Source of the DNA: Arthrobacter ruber
GTDB taxonomy: Bacteria > Actinomycetota > Actinomycetes > Actinomycetales > Micrococcaceae
Assembly: GCF_002954225.1 (NCBI RefSeq)
Contig: NZ_PPTH01000015.1
Coordinates: forward strand, 62,001 to 126,000
DNA: 64,000 nt
Direction: 5' to 3'
Shown: piece by piece, positions 55,983 through 64,000 of the stretch
How positions within the stretch are numbered: position 1 is the stretch's first letter
Layout of the letters: every line of letters begins with the position of its first letter
Program-made: the position numbers and the translations under genes
Notes under the pieces: generated by a model
The model's database searches: none
Told to the model about the DNA's origin: nothing
Seen by the model: only the letters and a program-made list of their open reading frames with translations

Positions 55983-58052
55983 ATGAGCTATGGTCTCAGC
56001 ATCGATGTAGGAACCAGTTTCACGGCGGCCGCCGTCCTGCCGGCAGGCGGCTCCGGGGCGGAGCCGCGCGTCCTCCCGCTGGGCAGTCGTGGGGCCTCCG
56101 TCCCCACCGTCGTCTTCCTGGCCCAGGACGGCACCCGGCTCGTCGGCGAGGTCGCCGAACGCCGGGGGCTCGCCGAGCCCGGGCGCGTGGCCAGGGAGTT
56201 CAAGCGCCGCATGGGCGACTCCGTGCCCCTGGTCCTGGGGGAGTCCGCCGTCCTGCCCGAGGAGCTCTTCGTCGTCGTCGTCGCCTGGGTGGTGGGCGTG
56301 GCCACCGAGCGCGAGGGCGAGCCACCGGCGTCGATCACGCTGACGCACCCCGCGGGATGGGGCGAGCACCGGACGTCGCTGCTGCGGCAGGCGCTCGCGG
56401 AGGCGGGGTTCCACGACGTCGTCCTCATGACCGAACCCGAGGCCGCCGCCCTGTCCTACGCATCGCGGGAACGGGTGGTCGCCGGCAGTACGCTCGCCGT
56501 CTACGATCTCGGCGGCGGGACCTTCGACGCCACCGTGGTCCGGAAGACCGGCGCCGACACGTTCACCATCCTCGGCACGCCCCAGGGCATCGAGCGCCTG
56601 GGCGGGGCGGACTTCGACCAGGAGGTCTTCGCCCGTGTCCTCGAGGACTCCGAGGCCGCTCCGGCGGACCTCGAACAGTCCTCTCCCGAGGTCCTGGCCG
56701 CACTGACGCGGCTGCGCCGGGAATGCGCGGAAGCCAAGGAGGCTCTCTCCTCGGACTCGGAGGCGACGGTCTCCGTCATGGTCCCCGGGTCCCACACGCA
56801 GGTGCGGCTGGTGCGGTCCGAGTTCGAGCTGATGGTCGAGCCCGCGCTGCGGGAGACCGTGGACACCCTGCGGGCCGCCCTCGACAGCGCCGATGTCCGT
56901 CCCGAGGATCTCTCCGCGATCCTGCTGGTCGGCGGGTCCTCGCGTATCCCGCTGGTGGCGCAGCTGCTGTCCGCGCAGTTCAACCGGCCGCTGGCCATCG
57001 ATCTGGACCCGAAGGCCTCCGTCGCCCTCGGCGCCGCGTTCGCCACGGTTGCCCTCGAAGCTGCCCGGGACGCCGACGGTGCTGCGGATCAGCAGGAGAC
57101 TGCGGAGCCGGCCGCGGCGACGGTGCCCGGCCCGCTCCGCTCCGGGGTCAACGCGGCAGGGTTCGCGATCCCCTCCCGCAAGGGCGCGGCCGAACCCCAC
57201 CACGGGCCGGCGAGCATGGCGTCCAACAAGCGGCTGGGCGTGCGCGTGGCCGCGGTCGCCGCCGCGGTGGCCCTGCTGGGGGTCGCCACGGCGACGGCGA
57301 CGGGTAATGTACCCAGCTCGCTGACAACCTTCGGCGCACGGGCGGAAGCCGCGCAACCGACAAGTCCAACAGTGACGGGGAAGCCCTCCGGTGCGCCGAG
57401 TCCGGCCCCGGGGCCTGGAGTGGGGCCCCTGCGGGATGCCGGTGCCGCCGGTGAGCCCGGTGGGGCGCCCACTTTGATGGACAAGGTCCTCGGCGCCGGA
57501 CAGGGATCCGCCTCCGCGTCGCCGAGCGCAGCAGGAACTCCGTCGCGTTCGGCCGAGGCCACTAAGCGGCCCTCGGCCAAGGCGTCCGACGATGCCGGCG
57601 AGGACGCGGTGACGCCGGAGGCGACGTCGGGCAGCACCGTGCCGGGAAGCGCTGCGCCCGCGCCGTCCCCGTCCGCCGTCCCGCAGTCCGGGGCCACCGC
57701 GGATCCCGGGGCGAGCCCGGTGCAACCGACACCCCCCGTCCCGTTCCCGTCGGCCGACCCCTCGCCTACGCCCACCGATCCTCCGACCGTGCCGGTCCCG
57801 CCGACAACCCCGCCCGTCGTGGACCCGACGCCTACGCCGACCACGCCGGGGCCGTCCCCGGACCCGACCGTCGACCCCACCACTCCGGCACCGAGCGATC
57901 CGGCACCGACCGACCCGCCCGCCGATCCACCGGCTGATCCGCCGGCCGATCCGCCCACGGAGCCCGCGTCCGAGCCGACGACCGCTCCCGCCGACCCGGC
58001 ACCCACCGACCCGCCGGCTGCCGCCACCGAACCTGCAACGGCGGTGGGCTGA
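55983..58052 (+). CDS. Hsp70-family ATPase domain protein, membrane-anchored, Pro-rich tail
   Basis: A 689-residue protein. Residues 1-365 form an actin-like Hsp70 nucleotide-binding domain: phosphate 1 loop GLSIDVGTSFTAAAV, phosphate 2 VYDLGGGTFDATVV (residues 173-186), and the adenosine motif LLVGGSSRIPLV (315-326). The Hsp70 substrate-binding domain is missing. A linker leads to one membrane helix at about 417-440 and an extracellular tail of about 245 residues rich in Pro, Thr, Asp and Ala, with PADPPADPP repeats. It could sense or couple envelope state to the cytosol. GGGGAA lies just upstream of the ATG. The LuxR gene follows after two bases. Confidence 0.87.
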   Translation: MSYGLSIDVGTSFTAAAVLPAGGSGAEPRVLPLGSRGASVPTVVFLAQDGTRLVGEVAERRGLAEPGRVAREFKRRMGDSVPLVLGESAVLPEELFVVVVAWVVGVATEREGEPPASITLTHPAGWGEHRTSLLRQALAEAGFHDVVLMTEPEAAALSYASRERVVAGSTLAVYDLGGGTFDATVVRKTGADTFTILGTPQGIERLGGADFDQEVFARVLEDSEAAPADLEQSSPEVLAALTRLRRECAEAKEALSSDSEATVSVMVPGSHTQVRLVRSEFELMVEPALRETVDTLRAALDSADVRPEDLSAILLVGGSSRIPLVAQLLSAQFNRPLAIDLDPKASVALGAAFATVALEAARDADGAADQQETAEPAAATVPGPLRSGVNAAGFAIPSRKGAAEPHHGPASMASNKRLGVRVAAVAAAVALLGVATATATGNVPSSLTTFGARAEAAQPTSPTVTGKPSGAPSPAPGPGVGPLRDAGAAGEPGGAPTLMDKVLGAGQGSASASPSAAGTPSRSAEATKRPSAKASDDAGEDAVTPEATSGSTVPGSAAPAPSPSAVPQSGATADPGASPVQPTPPVPFPSADPSPTPTDPPTVPVPPTTPPVVDPTPTPTTPGPSPDPTVDPTTPAPSDPAPTDPPADPPADPPADPPTEPASEPTTAPADPAPTDPPAAATEPATAVG

Positions 58053-58054
58053 GC

Positions 58055-60166
58055 ATGGCGGCTCACTTCCTGGAGACAGGAGTGCGCCCGGGGCGCGGGA
58101 ACCACGCGCCGGAGATGGACGCGGCGACGTACGAGGTGGTCCTCGCCCTGTGCGTCGGGTTCTCGATCCCGGGACTCCTCCCGCCACTGCTGCACAGCAC
58201 CGGTGAAGCACCCGAGCAGATCCTGGCCCGCGCCAGGACCGCCGGCCTGGTGGAAGCCGACGGGCGGCCCTCCGCGCAGCTGCGGGCCGCCCTGCTGGAC
58301 GACGCCGAGATCTACCAGGTGCGGCGGTTGCGGCGCGCCCTGGTGGACCTGTACTGCGCGGAGGGCCTTCCCCTCGGCCGGCTCGCCCGTCAGCTCGCCG
58401 CGGACGGATTCGTGGATACGCGGTTGGCCGCCGTCCTCGACGAGGAGGGCACGGCCCTGCTCGGAACCGATCCCGGTGGCGCACGGGAACTGCTGGACCT
58501 CGCCGTGGCTGCCGGCGCCGACGCGCTGCGCACCGCGCCCCGGCAGGCCGAAGCGGCCCTGGGCGTCGGCGACCTCGACGGCGCCTCCCGGATCCTGGAG
58601 ACCTACTTCGAGCGCCACTCCGCCGATCCCGGGACCGTGCTCCCGGACACCGGACGGGCCGTCCGGGTGTCCTGCGCACTGTGGGCACACCGGGGGATGA
58701 TGTCGCGCGCCGCGGACGTCCAGCGCTGGGCGGCGACGCTCGGCCCGCAGGGGCTCGAACCCCTCGGCGCACTGGCGCTGCTGGCGGCGGGCGATGCCGC
58801 CGGAGCGCGTTCGCTCCTCGAGGGCCGGTCCCGGGTCCCGAGCCCGTCGCTGCAGGACGTCTCGAACACGCTGATGGTCGAGGGGGCCCTGCTGTCGCTC
58901 GGCTCCGACCCCTCCAGTGCCCTGCCGAAGCTGATCCGCGCATCCGACACCCTCGATTCGACAGGGCGGATCTCCCCGGCGCCGGAGCTCCCCGCGGGTC
59001 TCGCGGCGATCGTCGGGCTCCTGGCCGGCAACCCGCAGACATCACTGTCCCTGATTCAGGCGGCACTGGCGAGCGGTCAGGGAGGAGAGGGGATGCGGCC
59101 CCACCTGTACCTGCTGGGTGGATGGGCGGCCATGCTCCTCGACCAGCCCGCCACGGCGCGCAGCTTCGTCACCGAGACGGGGCGGACCGGCATGCGGCTT
59201 GCTCCACGGGACGAGCTGCTCCTGCAGACACTGGAGGTGGGACTGGCACGCCGCGCCGGTGACGCCCCGGCGCTGGTGCGGGCCTGGGAGAGGGCCCACG
59301 CCGCCCTGCTGCATGTGTCGGTGGATCTGCTGACCGTCCTCCCGCTCACCGAACTCGTGATCGCGGCTGCACGCCTCCGGGACGCCCCGGCCCTCAAGCC
59401 GCACCTCGAGGAGGCATGGCACCTCCTGGAGGATCTCGGGCACCCGCCGCTGTGGTCCGTCCCCCTGCACTGGTCGGCCGCGCAGGCCGCCCTCCTGCTC
59501 GAGCGCCCGGACGACCTGGGTCCGCACGCCGCGGCCCTGGTCCGGCAGGCGGCCGGGTATCCGCTCGCCGCCACCTTCGCAGTGGCGGGCAAGGCGTGGG
59601 TCTCGGTCCTGGCAGGGCACTTCGAGCCCGATGCCATCGAGGGGGCGGCACGGGGGCTCGCCGCCGGAGGTTTCCCGTGGGAAGGCGCTCGACTGGCCGG
59701 CCACGCATCGGCCCGGGCCGCGGACCGGAAGGACATGACCCGGCTGCTGTCGCTGGCCCGTGACCTGCGGCCTGCCCGCGAGCGGCCGGTCCGGCCCGAC
59801 GCACGGCCCCTCCGTGACGTGCCCGCGAAGCAGCCGGACACCGGCCTCCGTCCGGTCGGTCCGCAGGCCCGGGCGGTCCGTACCGGCGCTGTGCCGAGGG
59901 CCGCCGGGTTGGCGCTGAGCGGGCGCGAGCGGGAGATCGCCTCGCTGGTGCTGCTCGGCCGGACCTACCGGGAGATCAGCGAGGAGATCTTCATCTCGCC
60001 GCGCACCGTGGAGCACCACGTGGCGCGCATCCGGCGACGCCTCGGGGCGTCGTCGCGTTCCGAGCTGCTGGAGCGGCTGCGCCTCGCCCTCGAACCGGTG
60101 GCCGGCAGCACCGCGTCCGCAGGGTCCCCCGTCCAAACCCCTAACGGGAACAGGTGGACCCCCTAA
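58055..60166 (+). CDS. LuxR-type transcriptional regulator
   Basis: A 703-residue regulator. The C-terminal GerE/LuxR helix-turn-helix is at about 618-680 (LSGREREIASLVLLGRTYREISEEIF, then SPRTVEHHVARIRRRLG). The first 600 residues are alanine/leucine-rich helical repeats of TPR type. No Walker A loop is visible, so it is not a complete LAL/MalT-type STAND ATPase. The M. tuberculosis iniBAC neighbour Rv0339c is also a large LuxR-type protein, reported as a regulator of that operon (recalled). It starts two bases after the Hsp70-like gene and its stop lies inside a candidate operator, so autoregulation or activation of iniB is plausible. Confidence 0.88.
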   Translation: MAAHFLETGVRPGRGNHAPEMDAATYEVVLALCVGFSIPGLLPPLLHSTGEAPEQILARARTAGLVEADGRPSAQLRAALLDDAEIYQVRRLRRALVDLYCAEGLPLGRLARQLAADGFVDTRLAAVLDEEGTALLGTDPGGARELLDLAVAAGADALRTAPRQAEAALGVGDLDGASRILETYFERHSADPGTVLPDTGRAVRVSCALWAHRGMMSRAADVQRWAATLGPQGLEPLGALALLAAGDAAGARSLLEGRSRVPSPSLQDVSNTLMVEGALLSLGSDPSSALPKLIRASDTLDSTGRISPAPELPAGLAAIVGLLAGNPQTSLSLIQAALASGQGGEGMRPHLYLLGGWAAMLLDQPATARSFVTETGRTGMRLAPRDELLLQTLEVGLARRAGDAPALVRAWERAHAALLHVSVDLLTVLPLTELVIAAARLRDAPALKPHLEEAWHLLEDLGHPPLWSVPLHWSAAQAALLLERPDDLGPHAAALVRQAAGYPLAATFAVAGKAWVSVLAGHFEPDAIEGAARGLAAGGFPWEGARLAGHASARAADRKDMTRLLSLARDLRPARERPVRPDARPLRDVPAKQPDTGLRPVGPQARAVRTGAVPRAAGLALSGREREIASLVLLGRTYREISEEIFISPRTVEHHVARIRRRLGASSRSELLERLRLALEPVAGSTASAGSPVQTPNGNRWTP

Positions 60167-60187
60167 CGATCGATCGGGGTTAGGGGT
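60137..60187. promoter_or_regulatory. Candidate operator of the iniB-like gene
   Basis: CCCCTAAC occurs at 60138-60145 and 60160-60167, and the inverted GTTAGGGG at 60179-60186. The first two are 22 bases apart and the last two form an inverted repeat with an 11-base spacer centred near 60173. The LuxR stop codon lies within the second copy. The palindrome centre is about 60 bases upstream of the transcript start predicted from TACGTT, a classic activator position. Confidence 0.6.
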
Positions 60188-60221
60188 GCAACTACCGATG
60201 CCGGGCCTTCCCCTCCGCTCC

Positions 60222-60227
60222 TACGTT
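60222..60227 (+). promoter_or_regulatory. Possible -10 box TACGTT of the iniB-like gene
   Basis: TACGTT predicts a transcript start near 60234 and a 50-base leader with AAAGGA seven bases before the ATG. No good -35 box is seen, which fits an activator-dependent promoter. Confidence 0.45.
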
Positions 60228-60283
60228 TGAAACAAGCCAGGCAGTGACGCCGGCGAATCACACCAACGATAAAGGAATATCCC

Positions 60284-61678
60284 ATGGCAACTCTTGCTTC
60301 AGATCTCCTCGACTTCCTGATGAACCTGTTCAACGACCAGGAGGCGGCGAGCGAGTTCATCAGCGACCCGGAGACCGCCCTGGCCAACGCCGGCCTCGGC
60401 GGCGTGTGCATGGACGACGTCGACGCCGTCATGCCCGTGGTCCTCGATTACGCACCGGTCAGCTTCGGTGGCGGCAACAGCAGCTCGTTCGACCGCAACT
60501 ACGACACGGGCCGCAACTCCTCCGGCGATGTGGCACCGGGTGGCGGTGGCGGCGGCGCCGCGGTGACTCCGCCCCCCAGTGGCGGCAACGGCGGCGGTAA
60601 CGGTGGCAATGGGGGCAACGGGGGCAATGGCGGCAATGGCGGTAACGGTGGCGACGGCGGTCCCAGCACCGGCGGCGGTGGCGGTGCCAGCACCGGTGGG
60701 GACGACACGGATCACGGCAATGCGGTCCAGCAGCTCATGCACGTCGTCAACAACTACTCCTACACCTCGTCCGTGGACGACCGCGACACCATCACCGACC
60801 AGTCGGTGAACCAGAACATCTGGGCCAATGGTGACGTCAGCCAGATGTTCGACAACGACGCCTTCGTCGCCTCGGGCAACGGTGCGGTCGCAGCGAACGG
60901 GGACGCCCGGGTGGACAACTCGGTGGACAACTCCGACGACCACTCGGTGGACAACTCCACCAACGTCAACGCGGGCGGATCGGCGACGGTCGGGATCGGC
61001 AACGTCGAGGACTCGTACAACGACAATTCGGACAACTCGGACAATTCCGACAACTCCGACAACTCGGACAACTCGGTGAACACGGACATCGATGTCGACA
61101 TCGAGGACTCGCTGAACGACAACTCGGACAACTCCGTCGAGGACTCCTACAACGACAACTCCGACAACTCGGACAACTCGGACAACTCGGTGGACACGGA
61201 CACCGACATCGACGTCGAGATCGAGGACTCCCTGAACACCGACAACTCCGACAACTCCGACAATTCGGACAATTCGGACAACTCGGTCAACACGGACAAC
61301 TCCATCGATGCGGACGTCGAGGTGGAGGACTCCTTCAACACCGACAACTCCATCGATGCCGATGTCGAGATCGAGGATTCCTTCAACGACAACTCCGACA
61401 ACTCGACCACCACGGACAACTCGATCGACGCGGACGTCGAGGTGGAGGACTCGTTCAACGACAACTCGACCACCACCGACGTGTACGTCGAGGACTCGTT
61501 CACCTCGGACAGCTCGACCACCACGGATGTCGCGGTGGACGTCGCGGACTCGTTCAACGACACGGCGGTCCTGACGGACAACTCCCAGAGCGCGTACACC
61601 GAGATCGACGACTCGGCGTTCTTCGTGGACAACGAGGTCGACATCGATGCGGAGCTCACCGTCGAGGACGGCGCGTAG
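60284..61678 (+). CDS. iniB: IniB-like protein with Asn/Asp/Ser repeats
   Basis: A 464-residue protein. The first 60 residues (SDLLDFLMNLFNDQEAASEF, then DPETALANAGL and VDAVMPVVLDY) match the IniB N-terminal domain. A Gly-Asn repeat follows at about 97-135, then a mixed region, then from about 205 an extremely acidic repeat region: runs of up to six DNS triplets alternating with DADVEVEDSF-type segments of alternating polarity. There are no cysteines after the first domain and no signal peptide or membrane helix. AAAGGA precedes the ATG by seven bases. Mycobacterial IniB is a Gly/Ala-rich protein of unknown role encoded before iniA and iniC. Confidence 0.85.
   Translation: MATLASDLLDFLMNLFNDQEAASEFISDPETALANAGLGGVCMDDVDAVMPVVLDYAPVSFGGGNSSSFDRNYDTGRNSSGDVAPGGGGGGAAVTPPPSGGNGGGNGGNGGNGGNGGNGGNGGDGGPSTGGGGGASTGGDDTDHGNAVQQLMHVVNNYSYTSSVDDRDTITDQSVNQNIWANGDVSQMFDNDAFVASGNGAVAANGDARVDNSVDNSDDHSVDNSTNVNAGGSATVGIGNVEDSYNDNSDNSDNSDNSDNSDNSVNTDIDVDIEDSLNDNSDNSVEDSYNDNSDNSDNSDNSVDTDTDIDVEIEDSLNTDNSDNSDNSDNSDNSVNTDNSIDADVEVEDSFNTDNSIDADVEIEDSFNDNSDNSTTTDNSIDADVEVEDSFNDNSTTTDVYVEDSFTSDSSTTTDVAVDVADSFNDTAVLTDNSQSAYTEIDDSAFFVDNEVDIDAELTVEDGA
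60583..60666 (+). repeat. Gly-Asn codon repeat in the iniB-like gene
   Basis: Nine-base units of the type GGC-GGY-AAY and close variants are repeated in tandem and encode Gly-Gly-Asn. The region is probably unstable in copy number. Confidence 0.75.
61022..61075 (+). repeat. Six tandem 9-bp units encoding Asp-Asn-Ser
   Basis: Six consecutive copies of GACAAYTCS. Further runs of two to five copies recur at about 61120, 61157 and 61242. Synonymous third-base changes between copies indicate selection to keep the peptide repeat rather than a recent DNA expansion. Confidence 0.85.
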
Positions 61679-61715
61679 CCGGCACCGCTCGTAGAACTGA
61701 AGTAACTGCAGCACC

Positions 61716-61755
61716 GGGAAGGCCCAGCGGGAGTACGCTCCCGTTGGGCCTTCCC
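61716..61755 (+). terminator. Strong hairpin between iniB-like and iniA-like genes
   Basis: GGGAAGGCCCA-G-CGGGAG pairs with CTCCCG-T-TGGGCCTTCCC around a TACG loop: 18 pairs with one wobble. No clear U-tract follows. It lies 37 bases after the iniB stop and 35 before the iniA ATG, and may attenuate readthrough or protect the iniB mRNA 3' end. Confidence 0.75.
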
Positions 61756-61790
61756 TACGGTCTCATTCGAAGCGCATCGAGGAGTTTTCC

Positions 61791-63761
61791 ATGGATGATC
61801 TCGTTCCACTGGTGAAGAGCGGCCTGGGTCTGGTGGGCGAGGGGGACCGCTCCGATCTCCGCCAGCGGCTGGAGCAGACCCTGGCCCGCCTGGCGAACCC
61901 CGATGTACGGGTGATTGTGGTGGGCGAGTTCAAGCAGGGCAAGAGCAAGCTCATCAACGCGCTGGTCAATGCGCCGGTGTGCCCGGTCGACGACGACATC
62001 GCCACCTCGGTGCCCACAGTGGTCCGCTTCGGTGACCCGGCGTCAGCGGCAGTGCTGGTCCCGCGGACCGCCGACAGCCCCGCAGCCGACGGCTCCGCGT
62101 TCGAGCGGCGCCCCGTGGCACTGCAGGACGTGGCGTCGTTCGTCTCGGAGCGGGGGAACCCCTCGAACCAGCAGGGCCTCGCGTCCGCCGAGGTGCTCCT
62201 GCCCCGCCGGGTCCTGGCCGACGGCCTCGCGGTCATCGATTCCCCAGGTGTCGGCGGGCTCGAATCGGCCCACGCACTCACCACCCTGACCGCCCTGCCG
62301 ACCGCCGACGCCATGATCCTCGTGTCCGACGCCTCCCAGGAGTACACCGAACCCGAGCTGCGGTTCCTCAAGCAGGCGCAGCGGATCGTCCCCAACGTCG
62401 GGTGCGTGCTGTCCAAGACGGACCTCTACCCGCAGTGGCGCACGGTCGCCGACCTCGACGCCGCGCACCTCGCTTCCGCCGGCGTCGGGACCATCCCGCT
62501 CATCCCGGTGTCCTCGGACCTCCGCCTCGTCGCCGCGCAGACCAACGACGCCGAGCTGAACCGGGAGTCCGGCTTCCCGGAGCTCGTCGCGTACCTCCGC
62601 ACCGACGTCGTCGGCAAGGCGCAGGGCCTGCGCCGGCGGTCCGTGGCCTCGGACCTGCTGTCCGTCACCGAGCACCTGCGCCTGTCCGTGATCTCCGAGC
62701 TCTCGGCGCTCCAGAATCCCGAGGGGGTCCCGGTACTCCTGGCCGAGCTCGAGGAGGCGAAGGAGAAGGCCGACCAGCAGCGCAAACGCTCGTCGCGCTG
62801 GCAGACCACGCTCAACGATGGCGCGTCGGACCTCATCGCAGACATGGAGCACGATCTGCGCGACAGGCTCCGGTCCATCCAGCGCGAGGCGGAGATCGCC
62901 ATCGACGCCGGCGATCCCGGGCCCATCTGGGACCAGTTCGCGGAGTGGCTGGAGCAGCGGGTGGCCTCGGCGGTCTCGGACACGTTCGTCTGGACGAGCG
63001 AGCGCTCGCAGTGGCTCGCCGAGCAGGTGGCCGAGCTGTTCGCCCTCGACGAGGTTCCCCTGCCCGTGCTGGAGGTCTCCAGCACCGACGGCGTCCTGGC
63101 GCCCGTCGAGGAGATCCCGTTCCTCGATCCGGGGAAGGTCAGCCCGGCGGGGAAGGTGCTGATCGGCATGCGCGGTTCCTACGGCGGTGTGCTGATGTTC
63201 GGCCTGCTCACCGGGATCATCGGCATGTCTCTCATCAACCCGCTCTCGGTGGGCGCCGGGCTGCTGCTGGGACGGAAGGCGTACCGCGAGGACAAGGAAG
63301 CGCGGCTCAAGCGACGCCAGAACGACGCCAAGAACCTCGTCCGGCGGCAGATGGACGACGTCGTCTTCCAGGTGGGCAAGCAGCTCAAGGACCGGCTGCG
63401 CCTGGTCCAGCGCGAGATCCGCGACCACTTCGGGGACATCGCGGAGGAACACCACCGCTCACTCGCCGACTCGGTGACCGCCGCCCAGCGCTCGGCGTCG
63501 ACCTACAAGCAGCAGCGGGACGGGCGCGTCACCGAGCTAAAGGCCCAGCTGGCCAGGATCGACCAGGTGAACGCGCAGGCCAAGCGGCTCCTGCCCAGGG
63601 TCGCGGGGGCCACAGCCCAGGACGGCGGGGTCCAGGTGTCCGAGGTCAAGGGTGGATCACAGGGGCCCGCTGTCCAGGGGGCAGGAACCGGCACGCCCGA
63701 CGCCGCGGCTCCCGCGGCCGGTGGCAGTCCGCGTCACGCGAAGGCGGCGGCGGGCGCGTGA
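61791..63761 (+). CDS. iniA: Dynamin-family GTPase (IniA-like)
   Basis: A 656-residue bacterial dynamin-like protein. GTPase motifs: G1 GEFKQGKS (residues 45-52), G2 threonine in ATSVPT (71-76), G3 DSPG (150-153) and G4 SKTD (208-211). Long helical stalk segments follow, with a paddle-like hydrophobic hairpin near residues 465-495 (GVLMFGLLTGIIGMSLINPLSVGAG, quoted in part) for membrane insertion, then a coiled coil and a Gly/Ala-rich tail. Mycobacterial IniA is a membrane-fission dynamin. GAGGAG lies six bases before the ATG. Its stop overlaps the next GTG start. Confidence 0.9.
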   Translation: MDDLVPLVKSGLGLVGEGDRSDLRQRLEQTLARLANPDVRVIVVGEFKQGKSKLINALVNAPVCPVDDDIATSVPTVVRFGDPASAAVLVPRTADSPAADGSAFERRPVALQDVASFVSERGNPSNQQGLASAEVLLPRRVLADGLAVIDSPGVGGLESAHALTTLTALPTADAMILVSDASQEYTEPELRFLKQAQRIVPNVGCVLSKTDLYPQWRTVADLDAAHLASAGVGTIPLIPVSSDLRLVAAQTNDAELNRESGFPELVAYLRTDVVGKAQGLRRRSVASDLLSVTEHLRLSVISELSALQNPEGVPVLLAELEEAKEKADQQRKRSSRWQTTLNDGASDLIADMEHDLRDRLRSIQREAEIAIDAGDPGPIWDQFAEWLEQRVASAVSDTFVWTSERSQWLAEQVAELFALDEVPLPVLEVSSTDGVLAPVEEIPFLDPGKVSPAGKVLIGMRGSYGGVLMFGLLTGIIGMSLINPLSVGAGLLLGRKAYREDKEARLKRRQNDAKNLVRRQMDDVVFQVGKQLKDRLRLVQREIRDHFGDIAEEHHRSLADSVTAAQRSASTYKQQRDGRVTELKAQLARIDQVNAQAKRLLPRVAGATAQDGGVQVSEVKGGSQGPAVQGAGTGTPDAAAPAAGGSPRHAKAAAGA

Positions 63762-64000
63762 CGGACACCAGCACGGTCGAGGGCCTCCTCCGCGAGGCCC
63801 TCGAGGTGTACGACGACGAGTCCGCGGTGTGCGCCGACCTCGAGACCTACGCCCGAAGACTGAGGGAACCGTTGCGGGTGGCGGTCGCGGGCATGGTCAA
63901 GGCGGGCAAGTCCACCCTGCTCAACGCGATCATCGGCGAGGAGATCGCGCCCACCGGCACGGGGGAGTGCACCCGCATCATCACCTGGTACCGGTACGCC
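63758..64000 (+). CDS. iniC: Dynamin-family GTPase (IniC-like), 5' part only
   Basis: Only the first 81 codons are in the window; the frame is open at its edge. The start is GTG 63758, overlapping the IniA-like stop by four bases (GTGA), which indicates translational coupling. After about 36 residues of helical lead-in comes the G1 loop GMVKAGKS (45-52), then IGEEIAPTGTGECTRIITWYRY, which from memory closely matches the IniC start of mycobacteria. A pair of non-identical dynamins is typical of bacterial dynamin systems that work together. Confidence 0.85.
   Translation, partial: MTDTSTVEGLLREALEVYDDESAVCADLETYARRLREPLRVAVAGMVKAGKSTLLNAIIGEEIAPTGTGECTRIITWYRYA

What the first reader, a model, noticed from the sequence alone, without database searches (positions are those of the whole stretch)
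55983..64000. Expanded iniBAC-like envelope-stress locus: Hsp70-like ATPase + LuxR + IniB-like + two dynamins
Five codirectional genes combine an Hsp70-fold ATPase tied to the membrane, a large LuxR regulator, a repeat protein with an IniB N-terminal domain and two bacterial dynamins. Mycobacterial iniBAC (with Rv0339c and Rv0340 beside it) is induced by cell-wall drugs, and IniA is a membrane-remodelling dynamin. The Hsp70-like member directly coupled to the LuxR gene is not part of the M. tuberculosis operon as I know it, and suggests a sensor-regulator-effector system: ATPase/sensor, activator, scaffold, fission machine.
Basis: partly seen in the sequence, partly recalled or inferred. Interest (0 to 1): 0.85.

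Follow-up and report, generated by a model that had tools for sequence, protein, structure and literature searches.

The report
Envelope-stress gene set with split regulator
A soil bacterium carries a five-gene cell-envelope stress set, related to a drug-induced gene set of mycobacteria, whose gene switch has lost its own energy-using part and sits next to a membrane-anchored Hsp70-like protein that may have taken over that role.

Summary
An Arthrobacter-like genome carries hsp70-like, iniR-like, iniB-like, dynA and dynB in one direction; the last runs past the window end. The set is no local oddity: of 80 named IniR-type loci, 76 have the Hsp70-like gene directly upstream and 64 show all five genes. 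Within the genus the same 19 of 38 genomes carry Hsp70-like, IniB and DynA. The Hsp70-like neighbour is not new in itself: Boot et al. 2017 note a dnaK-like gene beside iniR in M. smegmatis.

New here: (1) this IniR lacks the whole N-terminal P-loop ATPase, lost in four or five lineages, mostly beside an Hsp70-like partner with an intact nucleotide site; one lineage (L092) is an exception. (2) CCCCTAA boxes lie in front of iniB in several families; the double box occurs once in the 3.66-Mb genome. (3) A long hairpin separates iniB from dynA.

Best reading: a one-promoter stress circuit in which the membrane-tethered Hsp70-like ATPase supplies the nucleotide-dependent step that IniR elsewhere has in cis. 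Anatomy, linkage and boxes are shown; signalling is inferred. A new variant of a known kind.

The parts
55983..58052 (+). Hsp70-like protein (689 aa): DnaK-type nucleotide-binding domain (about residues 1-360), one transmembrane-like segment (about 418-436), Pro-rich C-terminal tail; no substrate-binding domain found
   Evidence: Pfam/NCBIfam; DnaK domain in PDB sequences E 4e-40; hydropathy scan
58055..60166 (+). IniR-like LuxR regulator (703 aa) without the N-terminal P-loop ATPase: helical-repeat region and C-terminal GerE DNA-binding domain
   Evidence: NF038181 match, residues 55-680 to model 224-826 of 827, 314.5 bits against cut-off 750; alignment A1; all-helical model, mean pLDDT 83; no ATPase fragment between Hsp70 stop and IniR core in any frame
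60138..60186 (+). predicted IniR operator: boxes CCCCTAA at 60138-60144 and 60160-60166 (the latter contains the iniR stop codon) and an inverted copy TTAGGGG at 60180-60186
   Evidence: sequence; enrichment upstream of iniB; double box found once in the whole genome
60195..60227 (+). conserved promoter-like element CCGATG (60195-60200) and TACGTT (60222-60227), 21 bp apart
   Evidence: CCGATG in 75 of 110 iniB upstream regions against 242 of 1995 random windows
60284..61678 (+). IniB-like protein (464 aa): helical N-terminal domain, conserved middle block, low-complexity Asp/Asn/Ser repeats
   Evidence: NF038175; alignment A4; model confident only for about residues 1-57 and 140-159
61716..61755 (+). 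uninterrupted 18-bp hairpin between iniB and dynA, read as a partial terminator or mRNA stabiliser
   Evidence: fold z -4.9 (whole 112-nt gap); stem of 11 bp or more behind 53 of 63 iniB copies with dynA following
61791..63761 (+). DynA, IniA-like bacterial dynamin (656 aa)
   Evidence: Dynamin_N; IniA 6j72 E 1e-138 over residues 5-600
63758..64000 (+). DynB, second dynamin (497 aa); gene continues to window-equivalent position 65251 (L004:8758-10251)

Best explanation
This is a dedicated envelope-stress module. Under wall or membrane stress the IniR-like activator binds CCCCTAA boxes at one promoter and switches on iniB and, past a hairpin that lowers read-through, the dynamin pair that reshapes or seals the membrane. 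In canonical IniR an N-terminal P-loop ATPase has been proposed as the switch. In this lineage that domain is gone, and the only ATPase left in the regulatory pair is the neighbouring Hsp70-like protein, held in the membrane with its ATPase in the cytoplasm and a Pro-rich tail outside. I propose that it binds IniR and, by its nucleotide state or by strain on its tail, holds it inactive or releases it, much as the maltose transporter holds MalT (precedent discussed by Boot et al., section 17). Shown: genes, their linkage, loss of the IniR ATPase, intact Hsp70 nucleotide-site residues, box array, hairpin. Inferred: topology of the Hsp70-like protein, that the boxes are IniR's operator, that Hsp70-like and IniR touch, direction of control, inducing signal, dynamin role.
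For: Hsp70-like directly upstream of IniR in 76 of 80 named loci. All-or-none presence of three tested members in 19 of 38 genus genomes. ATPase domain absent in the window IniR and relatives; distance from Hsp70 stop to IniR core 53-208 bp in 36 of 37 ATPase-less rows, 477-737 bp in 56 of 57 rows with it; no remnant between the two in any frame; 4 changes on a 43-row tree, or 3 if one Micrococcaceae loss (AU p 0.158), plus L092 outside that tree. Of 37 ATPase-less rows 35 have Hsp70-like partners with 9 of 9 nucleotide-site residues; of 57 rows with the ATPase 26 do. CCCCTAAY: 126 of 142 sites in 1.96 Mb lie within 250 nt upstream of iniB; double box once in own genome, in 7 of 38 genus genomes, once each, all 7 among the 19 with the locus. 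M. tuberculosis IniR binds directly upstream of iniBAC and is reported to regulate only that operon (PMC5760070, section 11 and abstract).
Against: No binding, expression or ATPase data. L092 is a direct counterexample: ATPase-less IniR beside an Hsp70-like protein with 4 of 9 residues. The losses are only 4-5 events, so the pattern is not statistically established. Hsp70-like genes also lie beside dynamin pairs where I found no IniR core (L186, L190, L191), so their partner may be the dynamins. Some Pseudonocardiaceae have a degenerate Hsp70 site and an atypical Walker A. The window IniR scores well below the curated IniR cut-off. 16 of 110 iniB upstream regions lack even a relaxed box, and 12 of the 19 genus genomes with the locus lack the exact double box.
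Confidence: 0.37

Rival explanations
1. The Hsp70-like ATPase serves the dynamins (their assembly, disassembly or placing at the wall), not the regulator; it lies beside iniR only because the module is one stress unit.
For: 23 of 26 DynA places in the phylum sample have an Hsp70-like gene in the fetched region (the three without are L185, L192, L193), including three with a dynamin pair but no recognisable IniR core (L186, L190, L191). No CCCCTAA box stands in front of the Hsp70-like gene in the Arthrobacter loci printed.
Against: Its usual place is directly upstream of iniR, often overlapping or within a few nt, whether iniB and dynAB lie downstream, divergent or convergent. No substrate-binding domain was found.
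Confidence: 0.3
2. The ATPase-less IniR is simply a relaxed or differently triggered activator; its ATPase was dispensable and the Hsp70-like protein does not replace it as an enzyme.
For: The helical and DNA-binding parts stay conserved without the ATPase. Long IniRs coexist with intact Hsp70-like partners in 26 of 57 rows, and in L092 neither partner has an intact ATPase site by my reading.
Against: No readable ATPase-less IniR lacked an adjacent Hsp70-like gene (L107 has it in one ORF across assembly Ns, L140 is cut), and the nucleotide site is intact in 35 of 37.
Confidence: 0.22
3. The set is an anti-phage or conflict system like the GTPase-centred systems with HSP70 of Kaur et al. 2020.
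For: That paper describes HSP70 genes, some without the peptide-binding domain, in GTPase-centred gene sets of actinobacteria and firmicutes (PMC7159879, passages).
Against: Here DynA is IniA-like, and the regulator and IniB are homologues of the drug-induced mycobacterial module; shared synteny with ispE, ABC-F, glmU and prs in many genus loci suggests a resident locus.
Confidence: 0.05

Closest known systems
Mycobacterial iniR-iniB*-iniBAC locus (Rv0339c to IniC; Boot et al. 2017, PMC5760070)
   Same: Homologous IniR core and HTH, IniB N-terminal domain, IniA-like dynamin followed by a second dynamin, single-target regulator; dnaK-like gene beside iniR in M. smegmatis; CCCCTAA boxes also in front of iniB in unnamed loci of genus code g13 that I take for mycobacteria
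   Different: Window IniR has no ATPase domain; Hsp70 nucleotide site intact here but 2-3 of 9 residues in the six g13 rows read; Hsp70, IniR, IniB, DynA and DynB all on one strand; IniB tail is Asp/Asn/Ser repeats
MalT-type signal transduction ATPases with LuxR DNA-binding domain
   Same: Helical repeat part and C-terminal GerE domain
   Different: No P-loop ATPase domain; the PDB fold search gave general helical-repeat proteins and no MalT among the 50 rows shown
DnaK/Hsp70 chaperones
   Same: Nucleotide-binding domain with the nine nucleotide-site residues checked
   Different: No substrate-binding domain found; hydrophobic segment and Pro-rich tail instead; 154 bits against the DnaK equivalog cut-off of 822
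IniA dynamin of M. smegmatis (6j72; PMC6715688)
   Same: Homologous over residues 5-600
   Different: Fission activity untested here

Membership tests
IniR (NF038181 equivalog) | score above curated cut-off (750 bits) | tested here: not met
   314.5 bits, matched from model position 224
IniR (NF038181 equivalog) | N-terminal AAA+/P-loop ATPase domain | tested here: not met
   absent in alignment A1 and between Hsp70 stop and IniR core in all frames; all-helical model
IniR (NF038181 equivalog) | helical core and C-terminal GerE DNA-binding domain | tested here: met
IniR (NF038181 equivalog) | binds and activates the iniB promoter, and only that | tested here: inconclusive
   double box once in this genome, in front of iniB; binding not testable here
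IniB N-terminal domain proteins (NF038175) | score above curated cut-off (40 bits) | tested here: met
   73.9 bits
IniA-type bacterial dynamin | dynamin GTPase domain and near whole-length similarity to IniA | tested here: met
IniA-type bacterial dynamin | GTP-dependent membrane fission | not testable with these tools
   needs biochemistry
Hsp70 chaperone (DnaK) | nucleotide-binding domain | tested here: met
Hsp70 chaperone (DnaK) | substrate-binding domain | tested here: not met
   Pfam match ends at model 377 of 599; then a hydrophobic segment and Pro-rich tail
iniBAC operon | order iniB-iniA-iniC | tested here: inconclusive
   order is iniB, IniA-like dynamin, second dynamin; identity of DynB with IniC was not tested
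iniBAC operon | induction by cell-wall inhibitors | not testable with these tools
   no expression data
GTPase-centred conflict systems with HSP70 (Kaur et al. 2020) | DO-GTPase with GAP1 partner | not tested
   no GAP1 model run

The most novel reading that the evidence does not exclude
A split signal-transduction ATPase: the regulator's own P-loop ATPase has been discarded several times, and a separate membrane-anchored actin-fold (Hsp70-type) ATPase with a wall-facing tail acts as its nucleotide switch, coupling envelope state directly to transcription of a membrane-remodelling dynamin pair.
Probability: 0.26. Interest if true: 0.82.

Novelty: new variant of a known kind. Interest (0 to 1): 0.58.

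Why it matters
How the iniBAC stress response senses damage is open. Trehalose (PMC5760070) and an ATP burst (PMC6104191, passages read) have both been proposed, and the latter paper leaves open whether IniR senses ATP through its ATPase domain. Natural IniR variants without that domain, in soil bacteria and mostly with an intact Hsp70-like ATPase next door, allow that question to be tested directly. The conserved box gives a marker for the regulator's likely target, and the wide link of an Hsp70-like membrane protein with a dynamin pair suggests a partner that the models in the papers I read do not include.

Tried and rejected
Hsp70-IniR fusion as Rosetta-stone evidence: two genus loci have both in one long ORF (L074, 1359 aa; L107, 1447 aa), but L107 has assembly Ns near the junction and L074 changes reading frame in the low-complexity tail; neither is used as evidence of a fusion (L107 is counted among the 76 adjacent cases).

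Extra ATPase losses: L165 (ATPase lies upstream in another frame), L140 (core cut) and L102 (weak ATPase match) first looked like losses and were rejected. L162 and L157 are cut by contig ends. Confidence in the best reading was lowered from 0.42 to 0.37, the novel case from 0.30 to 0.26, and the relaxed-regulator rival raised from 0.18 to 0.22 for this reason.

A single Micrococcaceae loss versus two: not decided (AU p 0.158). Decay of Hsp70 and IniR ATPase sites as mutually exclusive: broken by L092.

IniB N-terminal domain in Pfam: no match for the window's first 65 residues, only weak hits above E 0.05 for four relatives. IniB tail structure: low confidence. IniR fold search: generic helical-repeat matches. 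Box array in front of the Hsp70-like gene or dynA as a wider regulon: 2 of 97 and 0 of 86 upstream regions on the sense strand; counted on both strands, 17 of 97 hsp70 upstream regions have two or more CCCCTAA, which I put down to layouts where iniB is divergent from hsp70 (not checked one by one).

Full report
What is there. The window lies in an unnamed 3.66-Mb genome (G000:C11:62001-126000). Its closest named loci for this region are Arthrobacter, A. agilis first (72% identity of the best regulator segment); the genus label is read from these matches. From 55983 on there are five codirectional genes: an Hsp70-like protein, a LuxR/GerE regulator 2 nt behind it, an IniB-like protein after 117 nt, a dynamin after 112 nt and a second dynamin that overlaps the first by 4 nt and ends outside the window. 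Upstream are a GHMP kinase (ispE by position, my reading) and an ABC-F-type gene; downstream a DUF559/MTES_1575 nuclease-like gene on the other strand, then genes that I read as glmU and prs from their sequence (no family scan was run on them).

The parts. The Hsp70-like protein has a DnaK-type nucleotide-binding domain, one hydrophobic segment from about residue 418 and a tail of 252 residues with 65 Pro; no substrate-binding domain was matched. The basic residues before the hydrophobic segment suggest that the ATPase is cytoplasmic (inference). The LuxR protein is a homologue of IniR, the regulator of mycobacterial iniBAC: NF038181 matches residues 55-680 at model positions 224-826 of 827 with 314.5 bits, below the cut-off of 750. 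The IniB-like protein passes NF038175. DynA matches IniA of M. smegmatis over residues 5-600, E 1e-138.

How widely the set occurs. Of these 80 loci, 77 hold an Hsp70-like gene, 76 hold it directly upstream on the same strand, 75 an IniB-like gene, 72 DynA, 69 DynB and 64 all five; of the 63 loci of 19 kb or more, 60 hold all five. The four without an adjacent Hsp70-like gene are three in loci cut short by contig ends (L140, L157, L162) and one with a broken regulator, L165, where it lies further off. By family: Micrococcaceae 32, Microbacteriaceae 18, Pseudonocardiaceae 11, Geodermatophilaceae 5, Georgenia's family 3, three single ones, 8 unassigned. A caution: the query alignment was made from loci first found through DynA or IniB. 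Anchored on DynA, 23 of 396 genomes of the phylum have 26 places at E 1e-50 or better; in 23 of these 26 the fetched region holds an Hsp70-like gene of at least 60 bits, and in L185, L192 and L193 it does not. The profile does not exclude an ordinary DnaK, but the window's genome has only two Hsp70 loci (three matches, two of them in one place). Within the genus, DynA, Hsp70-like and IniB are each found in 19 of 38 genomes, and the three lists are the same.

The lost ATPase. IniR is described with an N-terminal AAA+ ATPase, a MalT-like middle and a LuxR-like end (PMC5760070, section 10). In alignment A1 the window protein and six relatives start after that domain, while nine others keep it, most with a clear Walker A and a VDDAH box. 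The gap from the Hsp70 stop to the IniR core is 53-208 bp in 36 of 37 ATPase-less rows and 477-737 bp in 56 of 57 others; the two odd values are negative, from over-long ORFs. A permissive search in all frames of 15 loci found an ATPase beside the regulator in L165 (in another frame) and weakly in L102, which were dropped as losses; L140 was dropped because its core is cut. In the other 12, weak matches lay only in other ORFs, none between the Hsp70 stop and the IniR core. The predicted structure of the window protein is all-helical, mean pLDDT 83. On a careful tree of 43 rows the domain changes four times: two Micrococcaceae clades, Compostimonas and one Pseudonocardiales MAG. One joint Micrococcaceae loss is not rejected, p 0.158. 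L092, not in that tree, is a further loss in another family. So four or five events.

The partner. I read nine nucleotide-site positions of Hsp70 (named by E. coli DnaK numbering from memory) in 94 rows with an adjacent Hsp70-like ORF; seven more loci had none. Of 37 rows without the IniR ATPase, 35 have 9 of 9; L117, whose Hsp70 match breaks off, has 7; and L092 has 4. Of 57 rows with the ATPase, 26 have 9 of 9 and 31 have fewer; the six g13 rows that I take for mycobacteria have 2 or 3. So the Hsp70 site is usually intact where the IniR ATPase is lost, but L092 is a plain exception: there neither protein has an intact ATPase site by this reading. The pattern rests on few independent events and is not a statistical result; some Pseudonocardiaceae have a poor Hsp70 site and an atypical Walker A.

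The box. In front of iniB lie copies of CCCCTAA, in the window at 60138 and 60160 and inverted at 60180; the second contains the iniR stop codon. In 100 loci (1.96 Mb) CCCCTAAY occurs 142 times and 126 of these are within 250 nt upstream of an iniB domain start (27.5 kb). CCCCTAA is on the sense strand in 76 of 110 iniB upstream regions, 14 of 1995 random windows, 0 of 86 dynA and 2 of 97 hsp70 upstream regions. With a relaxed box on both strands 94 of 110 have at least one. The 32 regions without a strict CCCCTAA on either strand include many Microbacterium loci, but also Arthrobacter L110, Pseudarthrobacter L112 and L117, Mycetocola, Georgenia, Agromyces and Pseudonocardia. Boxes are in front of iniB in the g13 loci and in most Pseudonocardiaceae printed. 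The double box CCCCTAAYG-N-CCCCTAAYG occurs once in the window's genome (reversed control 0), and in 7 of 38 genus genomes once each. All 7 are among the 19 genomes with the locus, and by coordinate each site lies upstream of iniB; the other 12 genomes with the locus lack the exact double box. That IniR binds the boxes is inference, consistent with the ChIP peak directly upstream of iniBAC and the single-operon regulon reported for M. tuberculosis (PMC5760070, section 11 and abstract).

The hairpin. Between iniB and dynA the window has an uninterrupted 18-bp stem (z -4.9 for the gap). A stem of at least 11 bp occurs downstream of 53 of 63 iniB copies that are followed by dynA on the same strand, although the sequences differ; one plain shuffle of each gave at most 11. 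Of 24 iniB copies not followed by dynA, 11 also have such a stem, so a terminator role fits both. It would set IniB above the dynamins, in line with the stoichiometry remark in Boot et al. (section 17).

Mechanism and rivals. I judge most likely a dedicated stress circuit in which the membrane-held Hsp70-like ATPase gives the nucleotide-dependent step to an IniR that has lost its own. The strongest rival is that the Hsp70-like protein serves the dynamins, since L186, L190 and L191 have it beside a dynamin pair without a recognisable IniR core in the 20 kb fetched. A relaxed regulator is the second rival, and L092 speaks for it. A conflict-system reading is weak.

What is known. Boot et al. 2017 (abstract, sections 10, 11, 17 and passages read) describe IniR, trehalose as a cue and, in one sentence, a dnaK-like gene beside iniR in M. 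smegmatis. PMC6104191 (passages) links iniBAC to an ATP burst and leaves open whether IniR senses it. PMC13413693 (passages) adds HpoR as a repressor. PMC6715688 (passages and start of abstract) reports IniA fission. PMC7159879 (passages) describes other GTPase-HSP70 gene sets. In the searches (open-licence library only; listings) I saw no report of ATPase-less IniR, of the box or of the five-gene set outside mycobacteria; no search was made for the box sequence itself. Alland et al. 2000 on the iniBAC promoter is not held, so the box may have been noted there.

Noticed in passing
L004:15326-17947 (window-equivalent 70326-72947): A large LuxR regulator with an AAA_16 ATPase domain (873 aa) lies downstream of the prs-like gene; another ORF with similarity to it follows.
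   Followed up: partly
L186, L190, L191: Dynamin pair with an Hsp70-like gene but no recognisable IniR core or IniB in the 20 kb fetched.
   Followed up: partly
L089, L095, L100, L195, L196: Unnamed loci that I take for mycobacteria carry a further Hsp70-like gene beyond IniR or beyond DynB; only the L089 copy was aligned and its nucleotide site looks degenerate.
   Followed up: no
L106, L115, L126, L137, L165: iniB-like genes are duplicated or triplicated in tandem.
   Followed up: no
G000:C13:116706-118660: Two further Dynamin_N matches near each other elsewhere in the same genome.
   Followed up: no
L004:11227-12435 (window-equivalent 66227-67435): DUF559/MTES_1575 nuclease-like gene between the module and the glmU-like gene, on the opposite strand; matched in three of the fetched genus loci (L064, L065, L066) and not in the others.
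   Followed up: no
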